Origin: Paracoccaceae bacterium
Lineage (GTDB): Bacteria > Pseudomonadota > Alphaproteobacteria > Rhodobacterales > Rhodobacteraceae
NCBI GenBank assembly: GCA_030066855.1
Contig: JASJAU010000016.1
Coordinates: 1-64,000 of the forward strand
Length of the DNA stretch: 64,000 bases
Direction: 5' to 3'
Below are positions 12,508 through 21,015 of the stretch, piece after piece (position 1 is the stretch's first letter; each line of letters begins with the position of its first letter). A program made the position numbers and the translations under genes. Below the pieces are notes generated by a model, which did no database searches, was not told the DNA's origin, and saw nothing but the letters and a program-made list of their open reading frames with translations.

Positions 12508-12654
12508 GGGGTAAATCCGCCCTTCTCGCCGGAAATCGGCTGGCCTTGGGCCTACCGCTCAAAAAACCGCCGCGTTTGCCCAGCATTGAAGCCAAGCTAC
12601 TTGAATGGCCGAGGGCGCAGGCGAGAAACCAAGGATCAATTTGGGAGGAACGAC

Positions 12655-13095
12655 ATGAGAAAGAGTATTTCAGCCGCTGTTCTGGCCGCCGCTATCGCGA
12701 TCCCCGCATATGCAGGCGAGACTCCATCGCCGGACGGGGCGCGGGTCTATTTCGCCAATCTCGAGGACGGTGCGACAGTCGACGCGGGCTCGACCGTTGT
12801 CTTCGGGTTGAGCGGGATGGGCGTCGCCCCTGCCGGGACGGATGCCGAAAACACCGGACACCACCACCTTCTGATCAACCGGCCGCCGTTCGGCGAAGGC
12901 GCGGACGACGCCTACTCCACCGAGAACGGGCTTCCTGCCGATGACAACCACAAACACTTCGGCAAGGGGCAGACCGAGACGACGCTGGACCTTCCGCCTG
13001 GGCAGCATACGTTGCAACTGGTGCTGGGAGATTTGTCTCACATTCCTCATGACCCGCCGGTCGTGAGTGAATACATCACGATCACTTTGGAATAA
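12655..13095 (+). CDS. DUF4399 periplasmic protein
   Basis: Small exported protein of 146 residues. A typical Sec signal peptide (MRKSISAAVLAAAIAIPAYA) ends near residue 20. The mature part matches the DUF4399 family as I know it: VYFANLEDGATV at the start, a His-rich segment GHHHLLIN, DDNHKHFGKGQTE, and LPPGQHTLQLVLGD. The clustered histidines suggest metal binding, but the function is unknown. The ATG at 12655 is chosen over an upstream in-frame ATG because GGGAGGAA lies 4 bases before it and the signal peptide starts there. The rhodanese gene follows 24 bases later and is probably cotranscribed. Confidence 0.85.
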   Translation: MRKSISAAVLAAAIAIPAYAGETPSPDGARVYFANLEDGATVDAGSTVVFGLSGMGVAPAGTDAENTGHHHLLINRPPFGEGADDAYSTENGLPADDNHKHFGKGQTETTLDLPPGQHTLQLVLGDLSHIPHDPPVVSEYITITLE

Positions 13096-13494: not shown

Positions 13495-14751
13495 CTAGCG
13501 GAAGCTCGCGTAGGGGATATACCGCACCAGGTCACCCGGACGAATGTGGCGCGGGCCGTCCTCGATTTCGACCAGCCCGTCGGCCCAGGCCAGGCCGGAT
13601 ATCCGGCCCGAGCCCTCCGACTTGAACACCTCCGCGCGGCCGCTGGGGCCGATGCGGGCGCGAAGGTACTCGCGCCGGCCCGGCTTCTTGCGCTTTTCAA
13701 AGCCTGCGGGAACCTCGAAGCCCACCGGCTCGCGCCATCCCTGACCGGACAGAACGCCCAGCGCGGGACGGGCGAAGATCATCGTGCAGACCAGCGCCGC
13801 GACGGGGTTGCCCGGCAGCCCGAAAACCGGCGCGCCGTTCCAGACGCCCAGCGCGAGGGGCCGGCCGGGCTTGAGCGCGATCCGCCAGTCCGCGCGGCTC
13901 CCGGTCTCGCCCAGAAGCGCGGAGACATGATCCTCGTCTCCGGCCGACGCGCCGCCTGACGTGAGGATCGCGTCCACCTCCGCCCCATCGAGGGCGGCCC
14001 GCAGTACTTTCCGATCGTCGGGGACATGCCCGAGATCGACCGCCTCGAAACCCCAATCGGACAAGAGCGACAACAGCATGGGCCGGTTCGCGTCGTAAGT
14101 GCGCGACGGATCTGTTTCGGCCCCCGCCGGCACGATCTCATCCCCGGTGGATAGAACACCCACCCTGAGCGATTGATAAACCGAGACCTCGGTCACGCCT
14201 GTCGCCGCGAGGATCGCGATTTCGGCAGGTCCGAGGCGCGTGCCGTTCTCAAGCGCGACACTGCCGGCATCCACATCCTCGCCGGCCCGACGCGTATTCG
14301 CGCCGAGTTTGACCGGGCCTTCAAAGGCGATGCGCTCCCCGTCCGTCGCGACGTCCTCTTCAAGAACGACCGTATCCACCCCACCGGGCAGCAAAGCGCC
14401 CGTGAGGATTCGAACGGCAGAGCCTTCCGGCAAGCTGCCGGAATACGGCGCGCCGGCGGCGGCGCGGCCCTCAACCAAGGGCAGCGACTGATCCCCGTCG
14501 CCGGTCGCGGCATGGGCGAAGCCGTATCCGTCCACAGCCGCATTCGCGCCGGGGGGATTGGACCGCCGCGCAATGGCGTCTTCGGCCAGGATGCGCCCCC
14601 GCGCCTCTTCTAACGGCAGGTCCTCTGTACCGACCGTCGGGTGGAGCCGCTCGCGCAGGCGCCGCAGCGCCTCGTCCACAGGCGTCCAATCCACGCCGGG
14701 CGGCAGCGCGAAACAGTCGTTCTTCAATCGAGGCGGCGTCAGGTCCGGCAT
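13495..14751 (-). CDS. moeA: Molybdopterin molybdenumtransferase MoeA
   Basis: Inserts molybdate into adenylylated molybdopterin to give Moco. 418 residues, normal length. Visible family segments are VDGYGFAHA, VGVLSTGDEIVPAG, DANRPMLLSLL, the MoCF-domain core LTSGGASAGDEDHVS, and KPGRPLALGVW followed by GLPGNPVAAL. The C-terminal beta-barrel domain follows. Its start overlaps the end of the preceding unknown gene by 13 bases, placing it last in the fdhD-mobA-mobB-unknown-moeA operon. It converges on the rhodanese gene with only 3 bases between stops. Confidence 0.95.
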   Translation of the reverse strand: MPDLTPPRLKNDCFALPPGVDWTPVDEALRRLRERLHPTVGTEDLPLEEARGRILAEDAIARRSNPPGANAAVDGYGFAHAATGDGDQSLPLVEGRAAAGAPYSGSLPEGSAVRILTGALLPGGVDTVVLEEDVATDGERIAFEGPVKLGANTRRAGEDVDAGSVALENGTRLGPAEIAILAATGVTEVSVYQSLRVGVLSTGDEIVPAGAETDPSRTYDANRPMLLSLLSDWGFEAVDLGHVPDDRKVLRAALDGAEVDAILTSGGASAGDEDHVSALLGETGSRADWRIALKPGRPLALGVWNGAPVFGLPGNPVAALVCTMIFARPALGVLSGQGWREPVGFEVPAGFEKRKKPGRREYLRARIGPSGRAEVFKSEGSGRISGLAWADGLVEIEDGPRHIRPGDLVRYIPYASFR

Positions 14752-15584
14752 GCGGCGTGTCTCAACTCCCTCTCAAAGCCGAGGCCCAGTATCCAGCCTT
14801 CTTCCGGCGCGTCCACATCAAGCATGGCCCGAAGCTCGGATTCGTCCAGCCTGCTGATAGCGTCAGCGAGCAACCGCACCTGCGCCCTGTCCTTGATCGG
14901 ATCGCCCGACGCGCGAACGACATCGGCGATCAGCGACGGCCAGACTTCGACGAAGGCGACCTGTGGCGAGAGCTCTTCGAACGGCCAGACCGCAATGCTT
15001 CGACCGAACGCGGACCGGAGGCGTGAGAGCGCCGCCAGACCGGTCATCACCTGCCCGCCGACCGCGCCGGCGCCGCCCATCTGCCAGCAGGTGAAGGTTC
15101 CTGCGGCCCGTTCCTCGCACTGCCGTCTCTCCGGCAAGCCGTGATCGCTGGTGCGCCCGGACTTGAGACGCGGCAGGCTGGCGATGTCGGTCTTGGTTCC
15201 GTTGAACCAAAATGGTCCGATGCCGGCGAGCCTCCCATTCAATTCCCCCGCCAAAGCGAAGCGGTTGTTGGCCCTGGGCGTGTCTTGAAGCGACCTTTGG
15301 AAGAAGTCCCAGAGCCGCAGCGGCGACGGCTGGCCAACCACGGCGCTTGCAAAGCCTTTTGGATACCCGAACGGGAAATCGAACCCGATCATCAACCTCC
15401 GGCCGGTCGCCAGCTCTTTGCCAATGAGCTCTGAGAGCCATTCGAGCGCTAGCGTGCGATTGCGCAGGTATACCGGCTTCTCCCGATCCGCTACCGCGGC
15501 CCAGATCGCATCTTTGCGCGGACGCGGACCAGTGTCGTTGCCCGCCGACCAATCCACGACCGCGAACGTGTCGAAGGGTGTCAA
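14739..15584 (-). CDS. Unknown protein of the Mo-cofactor operon, possible RNase H-like fold
   Basis: 281-residue cytoplasmic protein encoded between mobB and moeA. The start is inferred to be TTG at 15582-15584, whose last two bases overlap the mobB TGA (TTGA). The conserved-looking core begins at once (FDTFAVVDWSAGNDTGP) and no ATG precedes it. The N-terminal strand with Asp and Gly (VVDWSAG), GFDFPFGYP near residue 75 and the late VEVWPSL recall the DUF429/RNase H-like layout. This is a pattern resemblance, not a demonstrated family. Homologues are, to my knowledge, sometimes labelled molybdopterin-guanine dinucleotide synthesis protein purely from context. Confidence 0.7.
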   Translation of the reverse strand: MTPFDTFAVVDWSAGNDTGPRPRKDAIWAAVADREKPVYLRNRTLALEWLSELIGKELATGRRLMIGFDFPFGYPKGFASAVVGQPSPLRLWDFFQRSLQDTPRANNRFALAGELNGRLAGIGPFWFNGTKTDIASLPRLKSGRTSDHGLPERRQCEERAAGTFTCWQMGGAGAVGGQVMTGLAALSRLRSAFGRSIAVWPFEELSPQVAFVEVWPSLIADVVRASGDPIKDRAQVRLLADAISRLDESELRAMLDVDAPEEGWILGLGFERELRHAACRT

Positions 15585-16075
15585 ATCCCGAGTTCCGCCG
15601 AGATGAAATCGGCGATCGCCTTCGTGTCGTTCAGGTCGAAGGTCGGCCGCCCCTCGGCCGCCGCGCCGCTGTCGGAAGCAACCGCCCGGATCGTCGGATC
15701 GCCGTCGGCGATCAGCGATTGCAGAGTCTCCGACCGATGCGCTTCGACCTTGGGATGACCGTCCCGTTTGTAACCTTCGATCAGAACCAGATCGACCGGG
15801 GCGAGTTTGACGAGCAGCGCGTCGAGCGGCATCTCCTCCTCGCCGCGCAACTCGTGCATGAGGGCCCAGCGCTTGCGGCTGGACAGAAGAACCTCGGTCG
15901 CGCCGGCCATGCGGTGCCGATAGCTGTCCTTGCCGGGATGGTCGACGTCGAACACGTGATGGGCGTGTTTCAGCGTTGAAACGCTCACGCCGCGCGATAC
16001 GAACTCCGCGACCAGACGCTCCATCAACCCGGTCTTGCCCGAGTTCTTCCAGCCGACTACGCCCCAGACCTTCAC
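15581..16075 (-). CDS. mobB: Molybdopterin-guanine dinucleotide biosynthesis adaptor MobB
   Basis: GTP-binding accessory protein for MGD formation, 164 residues. The Walker A motif GWKNSGKTGLMERL lies at residues 8-21 and the switch region LKHAHHVFDVDHPGKDSYRH follows near 36-56. VLIEGYKRDGHPKVE is the typical MobB block. It starts with GTG (16073-16075), overlapping the mobA stop as GTGA, so translation is probably coupled. Confidence 0.95.
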   Translation of the reverse strand: MKVWGVVGWKNSGKTGLMERLVAEFVSRGVSVSTLKHAHHVFDVDHPGKDSYRHRMAGATEVLLSSRKRWALMHELRGEEEMPLDALLVKLAPVDLVLIEGYKRDGHPKVEAHRSETLQSLIADGDPTIRAVASDSGAAAEGRPTFDLNDTKAIADFISAELGI

Positions 16076-16677
16076 GCCGCACCCTCGATCAGTCTTTCGG
16101 CCTCGGCGAGGTCGTCGGGCGTGTTGACGTTGAAGAACGGATCGAATGCGCCTGCCGGGAAATCCGCCATCGCTGTCCCATGCTTGTCAGTCCACATGAC
16201 CACCTTGCGCACGCCGTCTTCCAGCGCCGCCCGAAGGTCCTCCCTTAGAGCGACCGGCCAGAGACCGAAGGTCGGGTGCCGCCCATTCCGAGTTCGCGCC
16301 AGGGCGATCGGCTTTTGCTGCTCTTCCGAAGCCAGAACGAGCCGAGGCACCAGATCGGCGGGAAAGAACGGCGTGTCGGCGGCGGCTGTGCAGATATGCG
16401 TCGCCCCCTCGCCCGCCGCCCAATCGAGACCCGCCAGAACGCCTGCCAGAGGCCCCGCGAACCCCTCGACGCTATCCGACAACACCGGTAGGTCGAGCCG
16501 GGCGAACCTAGACGGGTCGCCGTTCGCGTTCAGAGCCAAAGCGCCGACCTGCGGTCCAAGGCGGTCGATCACATGCTCGAGAATCGTGCTTTCCCCGAGC
16601 GGGAGCATACCCTTGTCGCCGCCGCCCATTCGGGTCGCCTGCCCGCCCGCGAGGATGACCCCGAGCGGCGCCGTCAA
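16072..16677 (-). CDS. mobA: Molybdenum cofactor guanylyltransferase MobA
   Basis: Transfers GMP from GTP to Mo-molybdopterin, giving MGD for DMSO-reductase-family enzymes such as formate dehydrogenase. 201 residues. The nucleotidyltransferase signature GVILAGGQATRMGGGDKG is at residues 6-23, with DLPVLSDSVEGFAGPLAG and CTAAADTPFFPADL downstream. The only start that keeps this signature is TTG at 16675-16677. It overlaps the fdhD TGA as TTGA, and an in-frame stop two codons upstream excludes an earlier start. Confidence 0.95.
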   Translation of the reverse strand: MTAPLGVILAGGQATRMGGGDKGMLPLGESTILEHVIDRLGPQVGALALNANGDPSRFARLDLPVLSDSVEGFAGPLAGVLAGLDWAAGEGATHICTAAADTPFFPADLVPRLVLASEEQQKPIALARTRNGRHPTFGLWPVALREDLRAALEDGVRKVVMWTDKHGTAMADFPAGAFDPFFNVNTPDDLAEAERLIEGAA

Positions 16678-17579
16678 CTGTCAGCCCCGGCGCTTTTGCG
16701 GCGATGCTTGCCGTCCTCCTCGCTCACCGCTTTCGGATCCGCGTCGCGCACCAACCGCTCCTCGCCCGCAAGGCAATGGAACCGCCGCCCGCGCATGCGG
16801 CCGATGAGCGTGAGGCCGACCTCCCGCGCGATGTCCACACCCCAGGCGGTGAATCCGGAGCGCGAGGCGAGAACAGGAATGCGCATATGCGCGCATTTGA
16901 TCACCATCTCCGAGGTAAGCCGGCCCGTCGTGTAGAGGATCTTATCCTCCCCGCTCACACCTTCCGACAACATCCAGCCGGCGATCTTGTCGACTGCGTT
17001 GTGGCGGCCGACATCCTCCATGTAGGCGAGCGGGCGGTCCTGGCTGCAAAGCACCGTCCCGTGAATCGCGCCCGCTTCCAGGTAAAGCGAAGGCGTCCGG
17101 TTGATCCTGTTAGCGAGCGCGTAGAGCCAGGACGTCCGCACCTGGGTTTGAGGCAGCGTAAGGCCCTCGAGCCCCTCCATCATGTCGCCGAAGACAGTGC
17201 CCACCGCGCAGCCGGAAGTCCGCGTCTTTTTTTTCAGCTTCTCTTCATAGCTGGTTCGGCCTTCGGTACGCACGACGACCGTCTCCAGCTCTTCATCGAA
17301 GTCCACCCCATGGACGGTTTCGCCCTCCTGCAACATGCCCTGGTTCTTCAGAAACCCCAGCGCCAGGTACTCCGGGTAGTCGCCGATGGTCATCGCCGTG
17401 ACGATCTCCTGGCTGTTCAGGAAGATGGTCAGCGGCCGCTCTTCAACCACGGAAATCGCGGATCGCGCGCCCGTTTCGTCCACTCCCTCGACAGACCGGG
17501 TAAGGCCCTCGCGCCGGGGCGCCGGGGCGATCAGATAATCATCAAGATCATCACGAAGCATGATTTGCAGCTTCCTCAT
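16674..17579 (-). CDS. fdhD: Formate dehydrogenase accessory sulfurtransferase FdhD
   Basis: FdhD delivers sulfur from IscS to the Mo-cofactor of formate dehydrogenases. 301 residues. Family blocks include RPLTIFLNSQEIVTAMT, LGFLKNQGML, EDVGRHNAVDKIAG and ILYTTGRLTSEMV. The catalytic loop reads RTSGCAVGT with Cys124. The second Cys of the CxxC known from the Escherichia coli protein is replaced (C-A-V-G). A run of eight A in the coding strand (complement of 17227-17234) encodes the lysines just before this loop. An inner ATG at 17559-17561 is an alternative start. First gene of the Mo operon, divergent from azlC. Confidence 0.93.
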   Translation of the reverse strand: MRKLQIMLRDDLDDYLIAPAPRREGLTRSVEGVDETGARSAISVVEERPLTIFLNSQEIVTAMTIGDYPEYLALGFLKNQGMLQEGETVHGVDFDEELETVVVRTEGRTSYEEKLKKKTRTSGCAVGTVFGDMMEGLEGLTLPQTQVRTSWLYALANRINRTPSLYLEAGAIHGTVLCSQDRPLAYMEDVGRHNAVDKIAGWMLSEGVSGEDKILYTTGRLTSEMVIKCAHMRIPVLASRSGFTAWGVDIAREVGLTLIGRMRGRRFHCLAGEERLVRDADPKAVSEEDGKHRRKSAGADS

Positions 17580-17619: not shown

Positions 17620-18324
17620 ATGTCCTCCACCACCGCAAAATCCGCCTTCTGGCTGGGGCTTCGCGCCGGAGCGCCGTTCCTGCTGGTGGTGATCCCCTTC
17701 GCGGTTTTGTTCGGTGTTGTCGCGACCGAAGCTGGCTTGAATATTGCCGAGGTCATGGGGTTCTCCGTCCTCGTCATCGCCGGCGCCGCGCAGTTCACCG
17801 CCGTTCAGCTGATGACCGAAAACGCTCCGGTCTGGACCGTGCTGGCCGCCTCCCTCGCCGTGAACCTCCGGATGGCGATGTATTCGGCCAGCCTTCAACC
17901 GCACCTCGGTTCGGCGCCGTTTTGGCGACGTGTTTTCATCGCCTACACCAACTTCGACCAGAGCTACGCCGTCAGCATCCTGAAGTACGAAGAGGCGCCG
18001 GAATGGTCCGTCCCGCGAAAGACGGCCTATTTCTTTGGCGCCGTATCGGTGATCGCGCCTTCCTGGTGCGCCTTCACCTTCGTCGGCGCGGTGACCGGAG
18101 AGGCGATCCCGGACAGTCTCGCGCTGGATTTCGCGATGCCGATCCTTTTCCTGGCAATGGTCGCGCCGATGCTGAAAACGCTCGCGCATCTCGCGGCCGC
18201 CATCGCGTCTGTCGCCTTCGCGCTTCTGCTGGCCTTCCTGCCTTCGGGGATCGGTCTCCTCTTCGCGGCGCTCGCAGCAATGGCGGTGGGCGCAGAGGTC
18301 GAGCGACGGATGGGGCGGCCATGA
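17620..18324 (+). CDS. azlC: AzlC-family amino-acid exporter large subunit
   Basis: Inner-membrane protein of 234 residues with the AzlC signature near the N terminus (GLRAGAPFLLVVIPFAVLFG) and GAAQFTAVQLM further on. AzlCD pairs export branched-chain amino acids in characterised cases. The exact substrate here is unknown. It overlaps azlD by 4 bases (ATGA). The 40-base gap to the divergent fdhD start must contain the promoters of both, and no clear -35/-10 pair was seen there. Confidence 0.9.
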   Translation: MSSTTAKSAFWLGLRAGAPFLLVVIPFAVLFGVVATEAGLNIAEVMGFSVLVIAGAAQFTAVQLMTENAPVWTVLAASLAVNLRMAMYSASLQPHLGSAPFWRRVFIAYTNFDQSYAVSILKYEEAPEWSVPRKTAYFFGAVSVIAPSWCAFTFVGAVTGEAIPDSLALDFAMPILFLAMVAPMLKTLAHLAAAIASVAFALLLAFLPSGIGLLFAALAAMAVGAEVERRMGRP

Positions 18325-18647
18325 CCTATGCTTCCGGAACGGTCTGGACGATCATCATCCTCCTGGGCGTCGGCACGTTCCTGATCCGCTTCTCGTTTCT
18401 GGGCCTCGTGGGCGACAGAAAGATGCCGGACTGGGTCTTGCGGCACCTTCGTTACACGCCGGTCGCGGTCCTGCCCGGCCTGGTGGCGCCGCTCGTCTTC
18501 TGGCCTGCCGCGACCGGTGGAGCGACGGACGCGCCCCGCCTCGCGGCCGCCAGCATCACCGTGTTGATCGGTTGGTGGACGAAGAACGTGATCTGGGCGG
18601 TGTTCGCAGGCGCGCTGACGCTCTATGGCCTTCAGACGCTCGGTTGA
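18321..18647 (+). CDS. azlD: AzlD-family transporter small subunit
   Basis: 108-residue membrane protein with about four hydrophobic segments. It begins at the ATG that overlaps the azlC stop (ATGA) and contains the family block GTFLIRFSFLGLVG. It is the partner of AzlC in a two-subunit amino-acid exporter. A long open frame runs through it from far upstream on this strand, but only the part after 18321 is a protein. It converges on the lipoprotein gene with 9 bases between stops. Confidence 0.9.
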   Translation: MTYASGTVWTIIILLGVGTFLIRFSFLGLVGDRKMPDWVLRHLRYTPVAVLPGLVAPLVFWPAATGGATDAPRLAAASITVLIGWWTKNVIWAVFAGALTLYGLQTLG

Positions 18648-19508: not shown

Positions 19509-19967
19509 TCACTCCTCTTCCAGCGCCTTCGCCAGTTCGAACCCGATGCGGCGCGGCGCCTCGGCGGTGTCCGGTTTTCGCGCCGCCCGAAGCAACACGT
19601 TGAGCTGGCTGACGTGCTGTACAAGCTGCACCCGGCTGCCCGTCGCATCGACACCATAGAACGTCACGATATCAGGGTCGAAGTAGCCCAGGCCTTCGAT
19701 CTTGATCACACCGGCGCCTGTATCGGTGAACCCCATGGCCACCTCATGCTCGTTGTCCAGGTTCTTCTCGAAATTGCGAATGTAGAGAATCAGCCGCTCA
19801 TAGGCCCACTCGGCGGGGCTCTTCTGATCGACTGGCTTTCGCGCCAGCGCCTCTGGCAGCGGCACTTGCTCCGGGCTCACCTCGGACGGGTTGGAATGCG
19901 CGGCCCGTCCGGCGCGAAGCACGCTCGCCTCAGCGATTTCAGCCGATGTTTGGATTTCCTCATCCAT
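19509..19967 (-). CDS. DUF6173-type conserved protein
   Basis: 152-residue cytoplasmic protein of unknown function, recognised as the DUF6173 type by SAEWAYERLILYIRNFEK, the stretch HEVAMGFTDTGAG and the end block QLVQHVSQLNVLLRA. The ATG at 19965-19967 has AGGAGG at ideal distance (complement of 19975-19980). That start overlaps the end of the MBL hydrolase gene by 8 bases, implying coupled translation. A start 34 codons earlier is possible but lies inside the hydrolase gene. Confidence 0.8.
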   Translation of the reverse strand: MDEEIQTSAEIAEASVLRAGRAAHSNPSEVSPEQVPLPEALARKPVDQKSPAEWAYERLILYIRNFEKNLDNEHEVAMGFTDTGAGVIKIEGLGYFDPDIVTFYGVDATGSRVQLVQHVSQLNVLLRAARKPDTAEAPRRIGFELAKALEEE

Positions 19968-21015
19968 GCCCGCCTCCTGAAGACCGGTAGAGCCATGCCC
20001 CGTCGCTTCGCCGCTCCCGCGTCGCGCGGCCAGCATGCCAAAGGTGCAGGCAATGCGCGACCGCTTCAACCAGGGCGAGACCGTATTCGCCGGACCCGAT
20101 TGGCCGCTTGAAAAGCGTGTCGAAGCAATCGACGGCTGTTCGCGGCTTAGCCAAGAACGCTTCGAGCCGGTCGAGCGCGCTCACGTGGTTCTCAATTAGC
20201 TGGTCGATACGCGTCGGCAGGCCGCGATAGGGTTGCTTGTGACCCGGCAGCACCAACTGGTCGTCGGTCGCGAAGGGCTTGAGCCTCTCAGAACTCGCCA
20301 GCCAATCGGCGACCGGGTCCGCATGCGGCTCGGTCGGGTAGACCCCCAGATTGGGCGAGATCGACGGCAGAAGTTGGTCGCCCCCGATCACGAGCGCCTC
20401 GTCTTCGGACCAAAGCGTCGCGTGGTCCGGCGCGTGACCGTGTCCCAGCCGCACGATCCACTCGCGCCCGCCTGCGGATATGCGGCTTCCCTCATCGATC
20501 CGGGTGAAGCCGAGCGGCAGCGCCGAAATGACATCCGAGAAGTTGAACGGCCGCTCCGACATGCGCGCCGCCAGCACGTCCGGAGCCATGCCTGCCGACT
20601 TCCAGAACGCGATTGTTTCCTCCGCTGGTCTCGGCTGCTCGTCCAGGTGCAGCATCCGCGCGAAAAGCCAGGCGGTCCGCGTCGAGACGAGCTCCGCGCC
20701 GCGCTCGCTTTGAAACCAGCCGGCCAGGCCGATGTGGTCGGGGTGATGATGCGTGACGATCACGCGTTTGATTGGCTTGCCCGCGAGCGGGCCGGCGAGC
20801 GCTTGCTCCCACAATGCGCGCGTTTTGCGTGTGTCGAGCGCCGTGTCGATCAGCGTCCAGTTCTCGCCGTCGTCCAGCGCGTAGAGATTCACGTGATCCA
20901 GCGCCATCGGCATGGGCATGCGCAGCCAGAGGACGCCCTTGGCGACCTCCGCCGCACCGCCGGGCGCGGGCGGATCGACGTCCAGATAGCGTATGGCGCG
21001 ACCGTCCTTGGGCAT
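19960..21015 (-). CDS. MBL-fold metallo-hydrolase
   Basis: 351-residue metallo-beta-lactamase-fold protein. The metal ligands are clear: THHHPDHIG at residues 88-96 (HxHxDH), GHGHAPDHATLW, an IGGDQLL aspartate and the late LPGHKQPY histidine. The C-terminal third is helical, as in LACTB2-like proteins. The substrate is unknown; thioester or phosphodiester hydrolysis are family options. Its ATG overlaps the stop of the upstream acyl-CoA dehydrogenase gene by one base, suggesting a linked role in acyl metabolism. Confidence 0.88.
   Translation of the reverse strand: MPKDGRAIRYLDVDPPAPGGAAEVAKGVLWLRMPMPMALDHVNLYALDDGENWTLIDTALDTRKTRALWEQALAGPLAGKPIKRVIVTHHHPDHIGLAGWFQSERGAELVSTRTAWLFARMLHLDEQPRPAEETIAFWKSAGMAPDVLAARMSERPFNFSDVISALPLGFTRIDEGSRISAGGREWIVRLGHGHAPDHATLWSEDEALVIGGDQLLPSISPNLGVYPTEPHADPVADWLASSERLKPFATDDQLVLPGHKQPYRGLPTRIDQLIENHVSALDRLEAFLAKPRTAVDCFDTLFKRPIGSGEYGLALVEAVAHCLHLWHAGRATRERRSDGAWLYRSSGGGHG

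What the first reader, a model, noticed from the sequence alone, without database searches (positions are those of the whole stretch)
14739..15584. Unknown RNase H-like candidate inside a Mo-cofactor operon
A 281-residue protein of unknown function is locked between mobB and moeA by overlaps at both ends. Its opening VVDWSAG and later GFDFPFGYP recall DUF429/RNase H-like folds, an odd thing to keep in an MGD-synthesis operon. It may be an uncharacterised Mo-cofactor step.
Basis: partly seen in the sequence, partly recalled or inferred. Interest (0 to 1): 0.6.

Follow-up and report, generated by a model that had tools for sequence, protein, structure and literature searches.

The report
RNase H-fold protein beside cofactor enzymes
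An uncharacterised protein with a nuclease-like fold sits beside, and is often fused to, the enzymes that finish the molybdenum or tungsten cofactor, and relatives sit among vitamin B12 genes, so it probably helps handle nucleotide-carrying cofactors without being an essential step.

Summary
The gene is real: 281 codons, minus strand 14739-15584, overlapping mobB by 4 nt and moeA by 13 nt in an fdhD-mobA-mobB-X-moeA operon. MobA-MobB-X-MoeA order holds in 75 of 80 relatives' loci; X and MoeA share one frame in 60 of 80; X is under purifying selection. A confident AlphaFold2 model has RNase H-like topology, and D11, D69, E213 and D232 are invariant in 155 of 155 homologues. A sequence link to DUF429 was not significant. 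The neighbouring MoeA carries the Arg/Ala pair of Methylorubrum's tungsten-biased MoeA1 (75 of 75 scorable MoeAs).

New here: X is not Mo-only. In 14 of 49 loci outside the window's family (8 of 20 families) X lies in or beside cobalamin genes (after CobU, between CbiX and CobH, fused to CbiC). Where the Mo operon is reduced, X mostly stays with MobA (16 of 19). X is dispensable: one Roseovarius lost it, and 57 of 150 family genomes lack a full-length copy (MobA present in 17 of 18 X-less genomes checked).

Best reading: an accessory, probably metal-dependent phosphodiesterase acting on nucleotide-charged cofactor intermediates, not an obligatory step. Substrate and catalysis are inferred.

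The parts
14739..15584 (-). X: 281-aa RNase H-like protein of unknown function (the finding)
   Evidence: ORF and translation; model pLDDT 97.2, pTM 0.94; NF011066 C-half match
15552..15554 (-). codon of D11, end of strand 1 (first acid of an RNase H-type site)
   Evidence: invariant 155 of 155; strand 6-11 in the model
15378..15380 (-). codon of D69, just after strand 64-68 (GFDFPFGYP motif)
   Evidence: invariant 155 of 155; model
14946..14948 (-). codon of E213, end of strand 209-213
   Evidence: invariant 155 of 155; model
14889..14891 (-). codon of D232, start of helix 231-245
   Evidence: invariant 155 of 155; model
15581..15584 (-). TTGA overlap of mobB stop and X start (suggests translational coupling)
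   Evidence: sequence
14739..14751 (-). 13-nt overlap of the X stop and moeA start
   Evidence: sequence, ORF table
16674..17579 (-). fdhD, first gene of the operon
   Evidence: Pfam FdhD-NarQ E 1.6e-74
16072..16677 (-). mobA, Mo-cofactor guanylyltransferase
   Evidence: TIGR02665 212 bits, cut-off 151.85
15581..16075 (-). mobB
   Evidence: Pfam MobB E 8.4e-47; TIGR00176 above cut-off
13495..14751 (-). moeA, MoeA1-type insertase (Arg297, Ala318 in the oxyanion pocket)
   Evidence: Pfam MoeA_N/MoCF/MoeA_C; KPGR and NPVA residues

Best explanation
X is a member of an Alphaproteobacterial family with an RNase H-like (RuvC/YqgF-type) fold and an intact-looking four-acid metal site. I propose that it is an accessory, metal-dependent phosphodiesterase or pyrophosphatase. 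It would work beside the late, nucleotide-using steps of large metal cofactors: clearing, recycling or editing nucleotide-charged intermediates or nucleotides around MobA/MoeA in the Mo/W pathway and around CobU in the cobalamin pathway. In the window it is probably made by translational coupling within an fdhD-mobA-mobB-X-moeA1 operon. In most relatives it shares one frame with MoeA1 as an N-terminal domain on what looks like a flexible linker. Shown: the ORF, overlaps, conserved operon and fusions, fold model, invariant acids, the second home in cobalamin operons, and dispensability. Inferred: that it is catalytic, that its substrate carries a nucleotide, and that the common denominator is the guanylylated cofactor.
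For: Fold: AF2 model pLDDT 97.2, pTM 0.94, strand-strand-strand-helix-strand core. The best VIA-align neighbours are nearly all proteins that I know as RNase H-like or actin-like: Cas12a/Cas9/IscB RuvC, Spt6, TerL nuclease, YqgF, RuvC (Z 5.0-6.8). D11, D69, E213 and D232 are kept in 155 of 155 homologues. Operon: 75 of 80 loci MobA-MobB-X-MoeA, one frame with MoeA in 60 of 80. Of the 20 X+ family genomes with the weakest NF011060 match, one proved to have the full operon; of the other 19, 16 keep MobA beside X (11 MobA-X, 5 MobA-MobB-X). Cobalamin: 14 of 49 loci in 8 of 20 other families, as CbiX-X-CobH (9), CobU-X (3), CobB-X (1) and beside divergent CbiB (1), plus one in the window's own family (L174). 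X-CbiC fusion in L104. CobU over its cut-off in 36 of 45 X+ and 143 of 342 X- genomes. 44 of 45 X+ genomes have CobU over its cut-off or a MobA match over 100 bits (the same figure for X- genomes was not measured). X is a separate bead in the fusion: pTM 0.63, pLDDT dip at the linker.
Against: No activity is known. Foldseek E-values are 0.58 or worse and Z stays below 8, so the structural match alone could be a common arrangement. Many contexts show no cofactor link: 35 of 49 loci outside the family, among them ScpB, MATE, CCA nucleotidyltransferase (convergent), EamA, or a fusion to hydantoinase A. One X+ genome, G199, lacks both CobU and MobA. In the CbiX-X-CobH arrangement X is not next to the guanylyltransferase. 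The co-occurrence test is not corrected for kinship. X- relatives keep MobA (17 of 18), so X is not needed for guanylylation. X is the least constrained of the five operon genes.
Confidence: 0.35

Rival explanations
1. X is a nucleic-acid nuclease or nucleic-acid binding protein of the RuvC kind; its seat in cofactor operons is a lineage-specific passenger arrangement kept by tight coupling.
For: The fold neighbours are mostly nucleases. The distant Y clade (profile comparison E 1e-29) follows rarA, a RuvB-like AAA+ gene, and precedes rluC in 4 of 4 loci, with crcB between in 3. Contexts outside cofactor operons are mixed.
Against: Two unrelated cofactor pathways are hit (8 of 20 other families for cobalamin), and in-frame joins to MoeA and CbiC occur. 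A random passenger would not be expected to stay with MobA when the operon is reduced.
Confidence: 0.27
2. X is a non-catalytic scaffold or tether that holds MobA, MobB and MoeA1 (or CobU/CobH) together for hand-over of labile intermediates.
For: Frequent single frame with MoeA1, with an apparently flexible linker. In Methylorubrum the MoeA1 hub binds MobA, MobB and FdhD in two-hybrid tests (PMC13197769, Results read).
Against: Strict invariance of four acids and of R43, N116, R154 and Q178 in 155 of 155 sequences is typical of a catalytic or ligand site. Fused and separate forms are both found.
Confidence: 0.2
3. X is an obligatory, so far unrecognised chemical step of Mo/W-bis-MGD synthesis.
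For: Position between mobB and moeA in 75 of 80 loci.
Against: L081 has lost X but keeps fdhD-mobA-mobB-moeA. 57 of 150 genomes of the family lack a full-length X, and 17 of 18 X- genomes tested keep MobA. The window's genome also has a second MoeA-like protein and a stand-alone MoCF-domain protein that I read as MoaB/MogA-type, so the adenylation step is probably not vacant. Table 1 and the Results of the Methylorubrum paper name no such protein.
Confidence: 0.07

Closest known systems
NCBIfam NF011066 (PRK14495), MobB/unknown domain fusion protein
   Same: X matches the model's C-terminal 'unknown domain' over 275 residues, E 2e-51; the same gene pair.
   Different: X is a separate gene here; 175 bits against a cut-off of 596 set for the fusion, and no match in 190 class genomes passed that cut-off. 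The name gives no function, fold or link to cobalamin.
DUF429 (PF04250; COG2410/COG4328/COG4923), assigned to the RNase H-like superfamily (PMC3985635, passages seen)
   Same: Similar short motifs in similar order by eye: GxDG..GW / VDWS..W, VDMPIGLP / FDFPFGYP, E.HPE / E.WPS, and an acid near the start of the last helix. The paper predicts nuclease activity and notes conserved genomic context in close taxa.
   Different: No Pfam hit to DUF429 in 24 of 24 members; profile comparison not significant against shuffled decoys. X is about 65 residues longer than the Pfam model and its invariant Trp pattern differs.
YqgF/RuvX and RuvC Holliday-junction resolvases
   Same: Best Foldseek hit is YqgF (E 1.2); VIA Z 5.0-5.7 to YqgF/RuvX/RuvC chains over 115-123 residues.
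   Different: 11-16% identity over about two fifths of X; long stretches of X between strand 4 and strand 5 fall outside a minimal core; operon context unrelated to DNA repair.
MoeA1-MobB-MobA-FdhD tungsten branch of Methylorubrum extorquens (PMC13197769, abstract and Results read)
   Same: Same gene set as the window operon; the window MoeA has the MoeA1-type Arg and Ala.
   Different: The parts that I read name no X-like protein; metal preference in the window organism is untested.

Membership tests
RNase H-like superfamily | Core order strand1-strand2-strand3-helixA-strand4-helix-strand5-helix | tested here: met
   DSSP of the AF2 model: E6-11, E27-31, E38-40, H43-59, E64-68, helices, E209-213, H216-225, H231-245
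RNase H-like superfamily | Acidic residues at the ends of strand 1 and strand 4 and on the last helix (recalled from RuvC/RNase H) | tested here: met
   D11, D69, D232 (and E213) in 155 of 155 sequences, at the expected elements of the model
RNase H-like superfamily | Significant structural match to solved members | tested here: inconclusive
   Foldseek E 1.2 at best in PDB and 0.58 in BFVD; VIA Z at most 6.8, though the rows are nearly all RNase H/actin-like by my knowledge
RNase H-like superfamily | Metal-dependent phosphodiester hydrolysis | not testable with these tools
   needs purified protein
DUF429 (PF04250) | Match to the Pfam model above its cut-off | tested here: not met
   no hit for the window protein up to E 5; none to DUF429 among 24 members up to E 10; own genome 0 matches
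DUF429 (PF04250) | Profile-profile similarity | tested here: inconclusive
   P 0.008 with FDFPFGYP aligned to DMPIGLP, but 10 of 100 block-shuffled decoys score as high; 0 of 100 column-shuffled ones do
NF011066 MobB/unknown domain fusion | Homology to the C-terminal unknown domain | tested here: met
   E 2.2e-51, positions 166-450
NF011066 MobB/unknown domain fusion | One polypeptide with MobB, above cut-off | tested here: not met
   separate ORFs with a 4-nt overlap; 175 bits, cut-off 596
Enzyme of Mo-cofactor biosynthesis | Required wherever the pathway is present | tested here: not met
   X- operons and genomes with MobA/MobB/MoeA
MoeA1-type insertase (the neighbour) | Arg for Lys and Ala for Ser in the oxyanion pocket | tested here: met
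   75 of 75 scorable MoeA proteins (window plus loci; 3 more lack the positions); E. coli MoeA has K and S. Other MoeA copies in four genomes have Ser; their Lys/Arg position was not found by my pattern
MoeA1-type insertase (the neighbour) | Prefers tungstate | not testable with these tools
   -

The most novel reading that the evidence does not exclude
A family of RNase H-fold enzymes that act not on nucleic acid but on the guanylylated (or adenylylated) intermediates of metal cofactors, serving both the molybdenum/tungsten and the cobalamin pathways, for example as a proofreading or recycling phosphodiesterase paired with MobA and CobU.
Probability: 0.22. Interest if true: 0.8.

Novelty: new variant of a known kind. 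Interest (0 to 1): 0.5.

Why it matters
Late Mo/W-cofactor assembly still has unassigned parts (the role of MobB is called uncertain in the 2026 paper), and the roseobacter operon resembles the tungsten branch described there. A conserved, often MoeA-fused protein in it that also lives in B12 operons gives a concrete, testable candidate for a shared way of handling nucleotide-carrying cofactors, or for a non-nucleic-acid use of the RNase H fold. If it is only a passenger nuclease, the case still warns against reading function from operon position.

Tried and rejected
DUF429 membership: tested by Pfam, PDB sequence search with DUF429 (no entry up to E 1) and hhalign with 5 and then 24 DUF429 sequences. 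The motif register is suggestive, the score is not significant. A scan of viral contigs for more DUF429 gave no confirmed relative.

Replacement of a missing Moco enzyme: unlikely. The window's genome has a second MoeA-like protein and a 212-codon frame with a MoCF domain and an STGGTG motif, which I read as MoaB/MogA-type.

BluE/PduX-type L-threonine kinase (a recalled idea for a B12-linked gene of Rhodobacterales): dropped, since the paper passages that I saw (PMC6249242) give no link and the role would not fit the Mo operon. No BluE sequence was compared.

Strict dependence on cobalamin: rejected; the own genome, a draft, has no CobU match. Strict dependence on MobA: rejected; G183 and G394 have X and CobU but no MobA match over 100 bits, and G199 has neither. 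X predicted by MobA in MobB-less relatives: rejected; 17 of 18 X- genomes have MobA.

Defence (PADLOC), phage (PHROGs) and PDB sequence searches: nothing useful; the light-harvesting and L5 hits are weak and implausible. Fold search of viral models: nothing significant. Paper searches for the family or the operon with X listed no description of it; the library lacks most subscription journals.

Full report
WHAT IS THERE. The ORF is real and placed as described: 14739-15584, minus strand, TTG start, 281 residues. Its start shares TTGA with the mobB stop and its last 13 nt overlap the moeA start. The operon on the minus strand is fdhD (16674-17579), mobA (16072-16677), mobB (15581-16075), X, moeA (13495-14751), each identified by Pfam and/or NCBIfam. 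X itself has no Pfam or PHROG hit. Its one library match is the C-terminal 'unknown domain' of the NCBI model NF011066, a MobB fusion (E 2e-51), so the pairing with MobB was already on record, without a function.

CONSERVATION. One scan of genome contigs returned 80 loci, the most a call can list, by their titles Rhodobacteraceae and kin. The 67 that I aligned are 43-64% identical to X. In 72 of 80 loci the order is FdhD-MobA-MobB-X-MoeA, and 3 more have the same order without FdhD in the stretch. The other five are 2 MobA-X, 1 MobA-MobB-X, 1 cut at a contig end (X-MoeA), and 1 (L081) that has lost X. X and MoeA run in one open frame in 60 of 80 and are separate in 16; 4 are cut or remnant cases. 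Over 7 close pairs dN/dS for X is 0.08-0.18 (medians: X 0.12, MoeA 0.08, MobB 0.05, MobA 0.04, FdhD 0.03), so X is constrained, but the least of the five. L081 keeps mobB and moeA but only about 40 C-terminal residues of X, so X can be lost without loss of the operon.

FOLD. AlphaFold2 with 68 sequences gives pLDDT 97.2 and pTM 0.94; the order of strands and helices is that of the RNase H fold. Foldseek finds nothing significant (best YqgF, E 1.2). VIA-align ranks Cas12a/Cas9/IscB RuvC domains, Spt6, TerL nucleases, YqgF and RuvC at Z 5.0-6.8. That is below the level at which Z alone convinces, but the rows are, by my knowledge of these proteins, nearly all RNase H-like or actin-like. In 155 aligned homologues (L079, L081, L143, L146 and the four Y rows left out; a few are duplicates, such as L042/L189 and L192/L193) D11, D69, E213 and D232 never vary, nor do R43, F70, N116, R154, Q178, G182 and P201. 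The paper that placed DUF429 in the RNase H-like superfamily (PMC3985635, passages) describes conserved potential active-site residues in strands 1 and 4. X shows a similar motif order by eye, but the sequence link to DUF429 fails significance: P 0.008, with 10 of 100 block-shuffled decoys scoring at least as well, though 0 of 100 column-shuffled ones. I therefore say 'folds like', not 'is a DUF429'. The fused X-MoeA model (43 of the 60 fused sequences) has pTM 0.63 with a pLDDT dip at the linker. That fits two beads without a composite site, but the several domains of MoeA may also lower pTM.

NOT A MO-ONLY GENE. A profile search over 387 alphaproteobacterial genomes gives 97 with any match and 45 with a strong X (E below 1e-50). 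In 299 genomes of the phylum the only matches outside the class are one partial and one marginal hit. I fetched 49 loci with strong X from outside the window's family; some strong hits (G016, G071, G385) were not fetched. In 14 of 49, from 8 of 20 families, X lies in or beside a cobalamin cluster: CbiX-X-CobH-CobL in nine, directly after CobU in three, after a CobB/CobQ-like gene in one, and beside divergent CbiB in one. In L104 X is fused to CbiC/CobH. One X of the window's own family (L174) also sits between CbiX and CobH. X+ genomes have CobU over its cut-off in 36 of 45, the other genomes in 143 of 342 (Fisher p 1.8e-6, not corrected for kinship). The window's own genome, a draft, has no CobU match. 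Of the 9 X+ genomes without CobU, 8 have a MobA match over 100 bits; G199 has neither. The other 35 of 49 loci show no cobalamin or Mo gene beside X by my yardsticks. What I could name beside X there includes a convergent CCA nucleotidyltransferase, ScpB, MATE, EamA and a chromate transporter, and a fusion to hydantoinase A in L129.

X STAYS WITH MOBA. In 150 genomes of the window's family, 93 have full-length X, plus one partial and one marginal hit. I took the 20 of the 93 whose best NF011060 (MobB-MoeA) match was weaker than E 1e-95. X is next to MobA alone in 11, to MobA-MobB in 5, in the full operon in 1, in a cobalamin operon in 1 (L174), and elsewhere in 2 (L172 by an amidohydrolase, L180 by azlD). 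Of 11 X+ genomes with no MobB match, 8 have MobA directly beside X by coordinates. But 17 of 18 X- genomes without MobB also have MobA, so X is not needed for guanylylation. Thirteen genomes have MobB and MoeA in one match over the NF011060 cut-off, ten of them without an inner stop; of these ten, nine lack X and one (G705) has it elsewhere. In quick trees the Mo-operon sequences form one clade (with L172 and L180), MobA-X-only ones near its base; most cobalamin-linked ones fall in another, and L174 in neither (SH-aLRT 80-93 at the deep forks, so tentative).

WHICH MO OPERON. A 2026 study (PMC13197769; abstract and Results read) shows that in Methylorubrum extorquens MoeA1, MobB and FdhD are needed for a tungsten formate dehydrogenase, and that Arg291 and Ala312 of MoeA1 bias the pathway to tungsten. 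The window MoeA has both residues (R297, A318), as do 75 of 75 MoeA sequences with the positions present (window plus loci, the X-less L081 among the rows aligned; 3 more lack the positions; E. coli has K and S). Other MoeA copies in four genomes, including the window's second one, have the canonical Ser; their Lys/Arg position was not scored. So X sits in, and often shares a frame with, a MoeA1-type branch. Metal preference in these organisms is inference.

MECHANISM. Best reading (0.35): an accessory metal-dependent phosphodiesterase/pyrophosphatase that acts on nucleotide-charged cofactor intermediates or nucleotides near MobA/MoeA1 and CobU. Shown: overlaps, operon, in-frame joins, fold model, invariant acids, two-pathway context, dispensability. 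Inferred: catalysis and substrate. Main rival (0.27): a RuvC-type nucleic-acid enzyme riding in the operon. It is helped by the distant Y clade, clearly homologous (E 1e-29), which lies between rarA and rluC in 4 of 4 loci fetched. A scaffold role gets 0.2. An obligatory Moco step is mostly excluded (0.07).

NOVELTY. The domain was on record as 'unknown'. The cobalamin link, the staying with MobA, the MoeA1 residues and the fold assignment are new to me and were not found in my paper searches. I score interest 0.5: a good, testable unknown with a weak mechanism.

Noticed in passing
L118-L121 (about 5.6-6.9 kb in each): A distant sister clade of X lies between rarA and rluC in 4 of 4 loci from four other alphaproteobacterial families, with crcB between in 3; an RNase H-like gene beside the RuvB-like RarA may be a repair nuclease.
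   Followed up: partly
L081:5974-6118 (Roseovarius sp. MMSF_3281): Natural loss of X: mobB and moeA kept, only about 40 C-terminal residues of X left in the MoeA frame.
   Followed up: yes
L129:3033-6050 (L139 looks alike by length but was not scanned): X fused in one frame to hydantoinase/oxoprolinase A, followed by hydantoinase B; no cobalamin or Mo gene found by my yardsticks.
   Followed up: partly
L192:2382-3563, L193: Two viral-collection contigs with identical X domains; in L192 it lies on the strand opposite to what I read as phage tail genes (no domain scan made). Function or contamination unknown.
   Followed up: partly
window 17620-18647: azlC (Pfam) and, by eye, an azlD-like ORF lie divergent from fdhD; azlC/azlD also lie beside fdhD in Ruegeria (L170) and near X in L157 and L180, a recurrent neighbour of unexplained relevance.
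   Followed up: partly
genomes such as G736, G706, G738: MobB::MoeA single frames without an inner stop in ten relatives, nine of which lack X, as if direct fusion and X were alternatives.
   Followed up: partly
G709, G805, G814, G820: Four X+ genomes flagged with MobB and MoeA matches in one open frame of about 880 codons; whether X is part of a three-part fusion there was not checked.
   Followed up: no
window 12586-13095 and 19509-20069: Proteins with DUF4399 and DUF6173 domains near the operon, both of unknown function.
   Followed up: no
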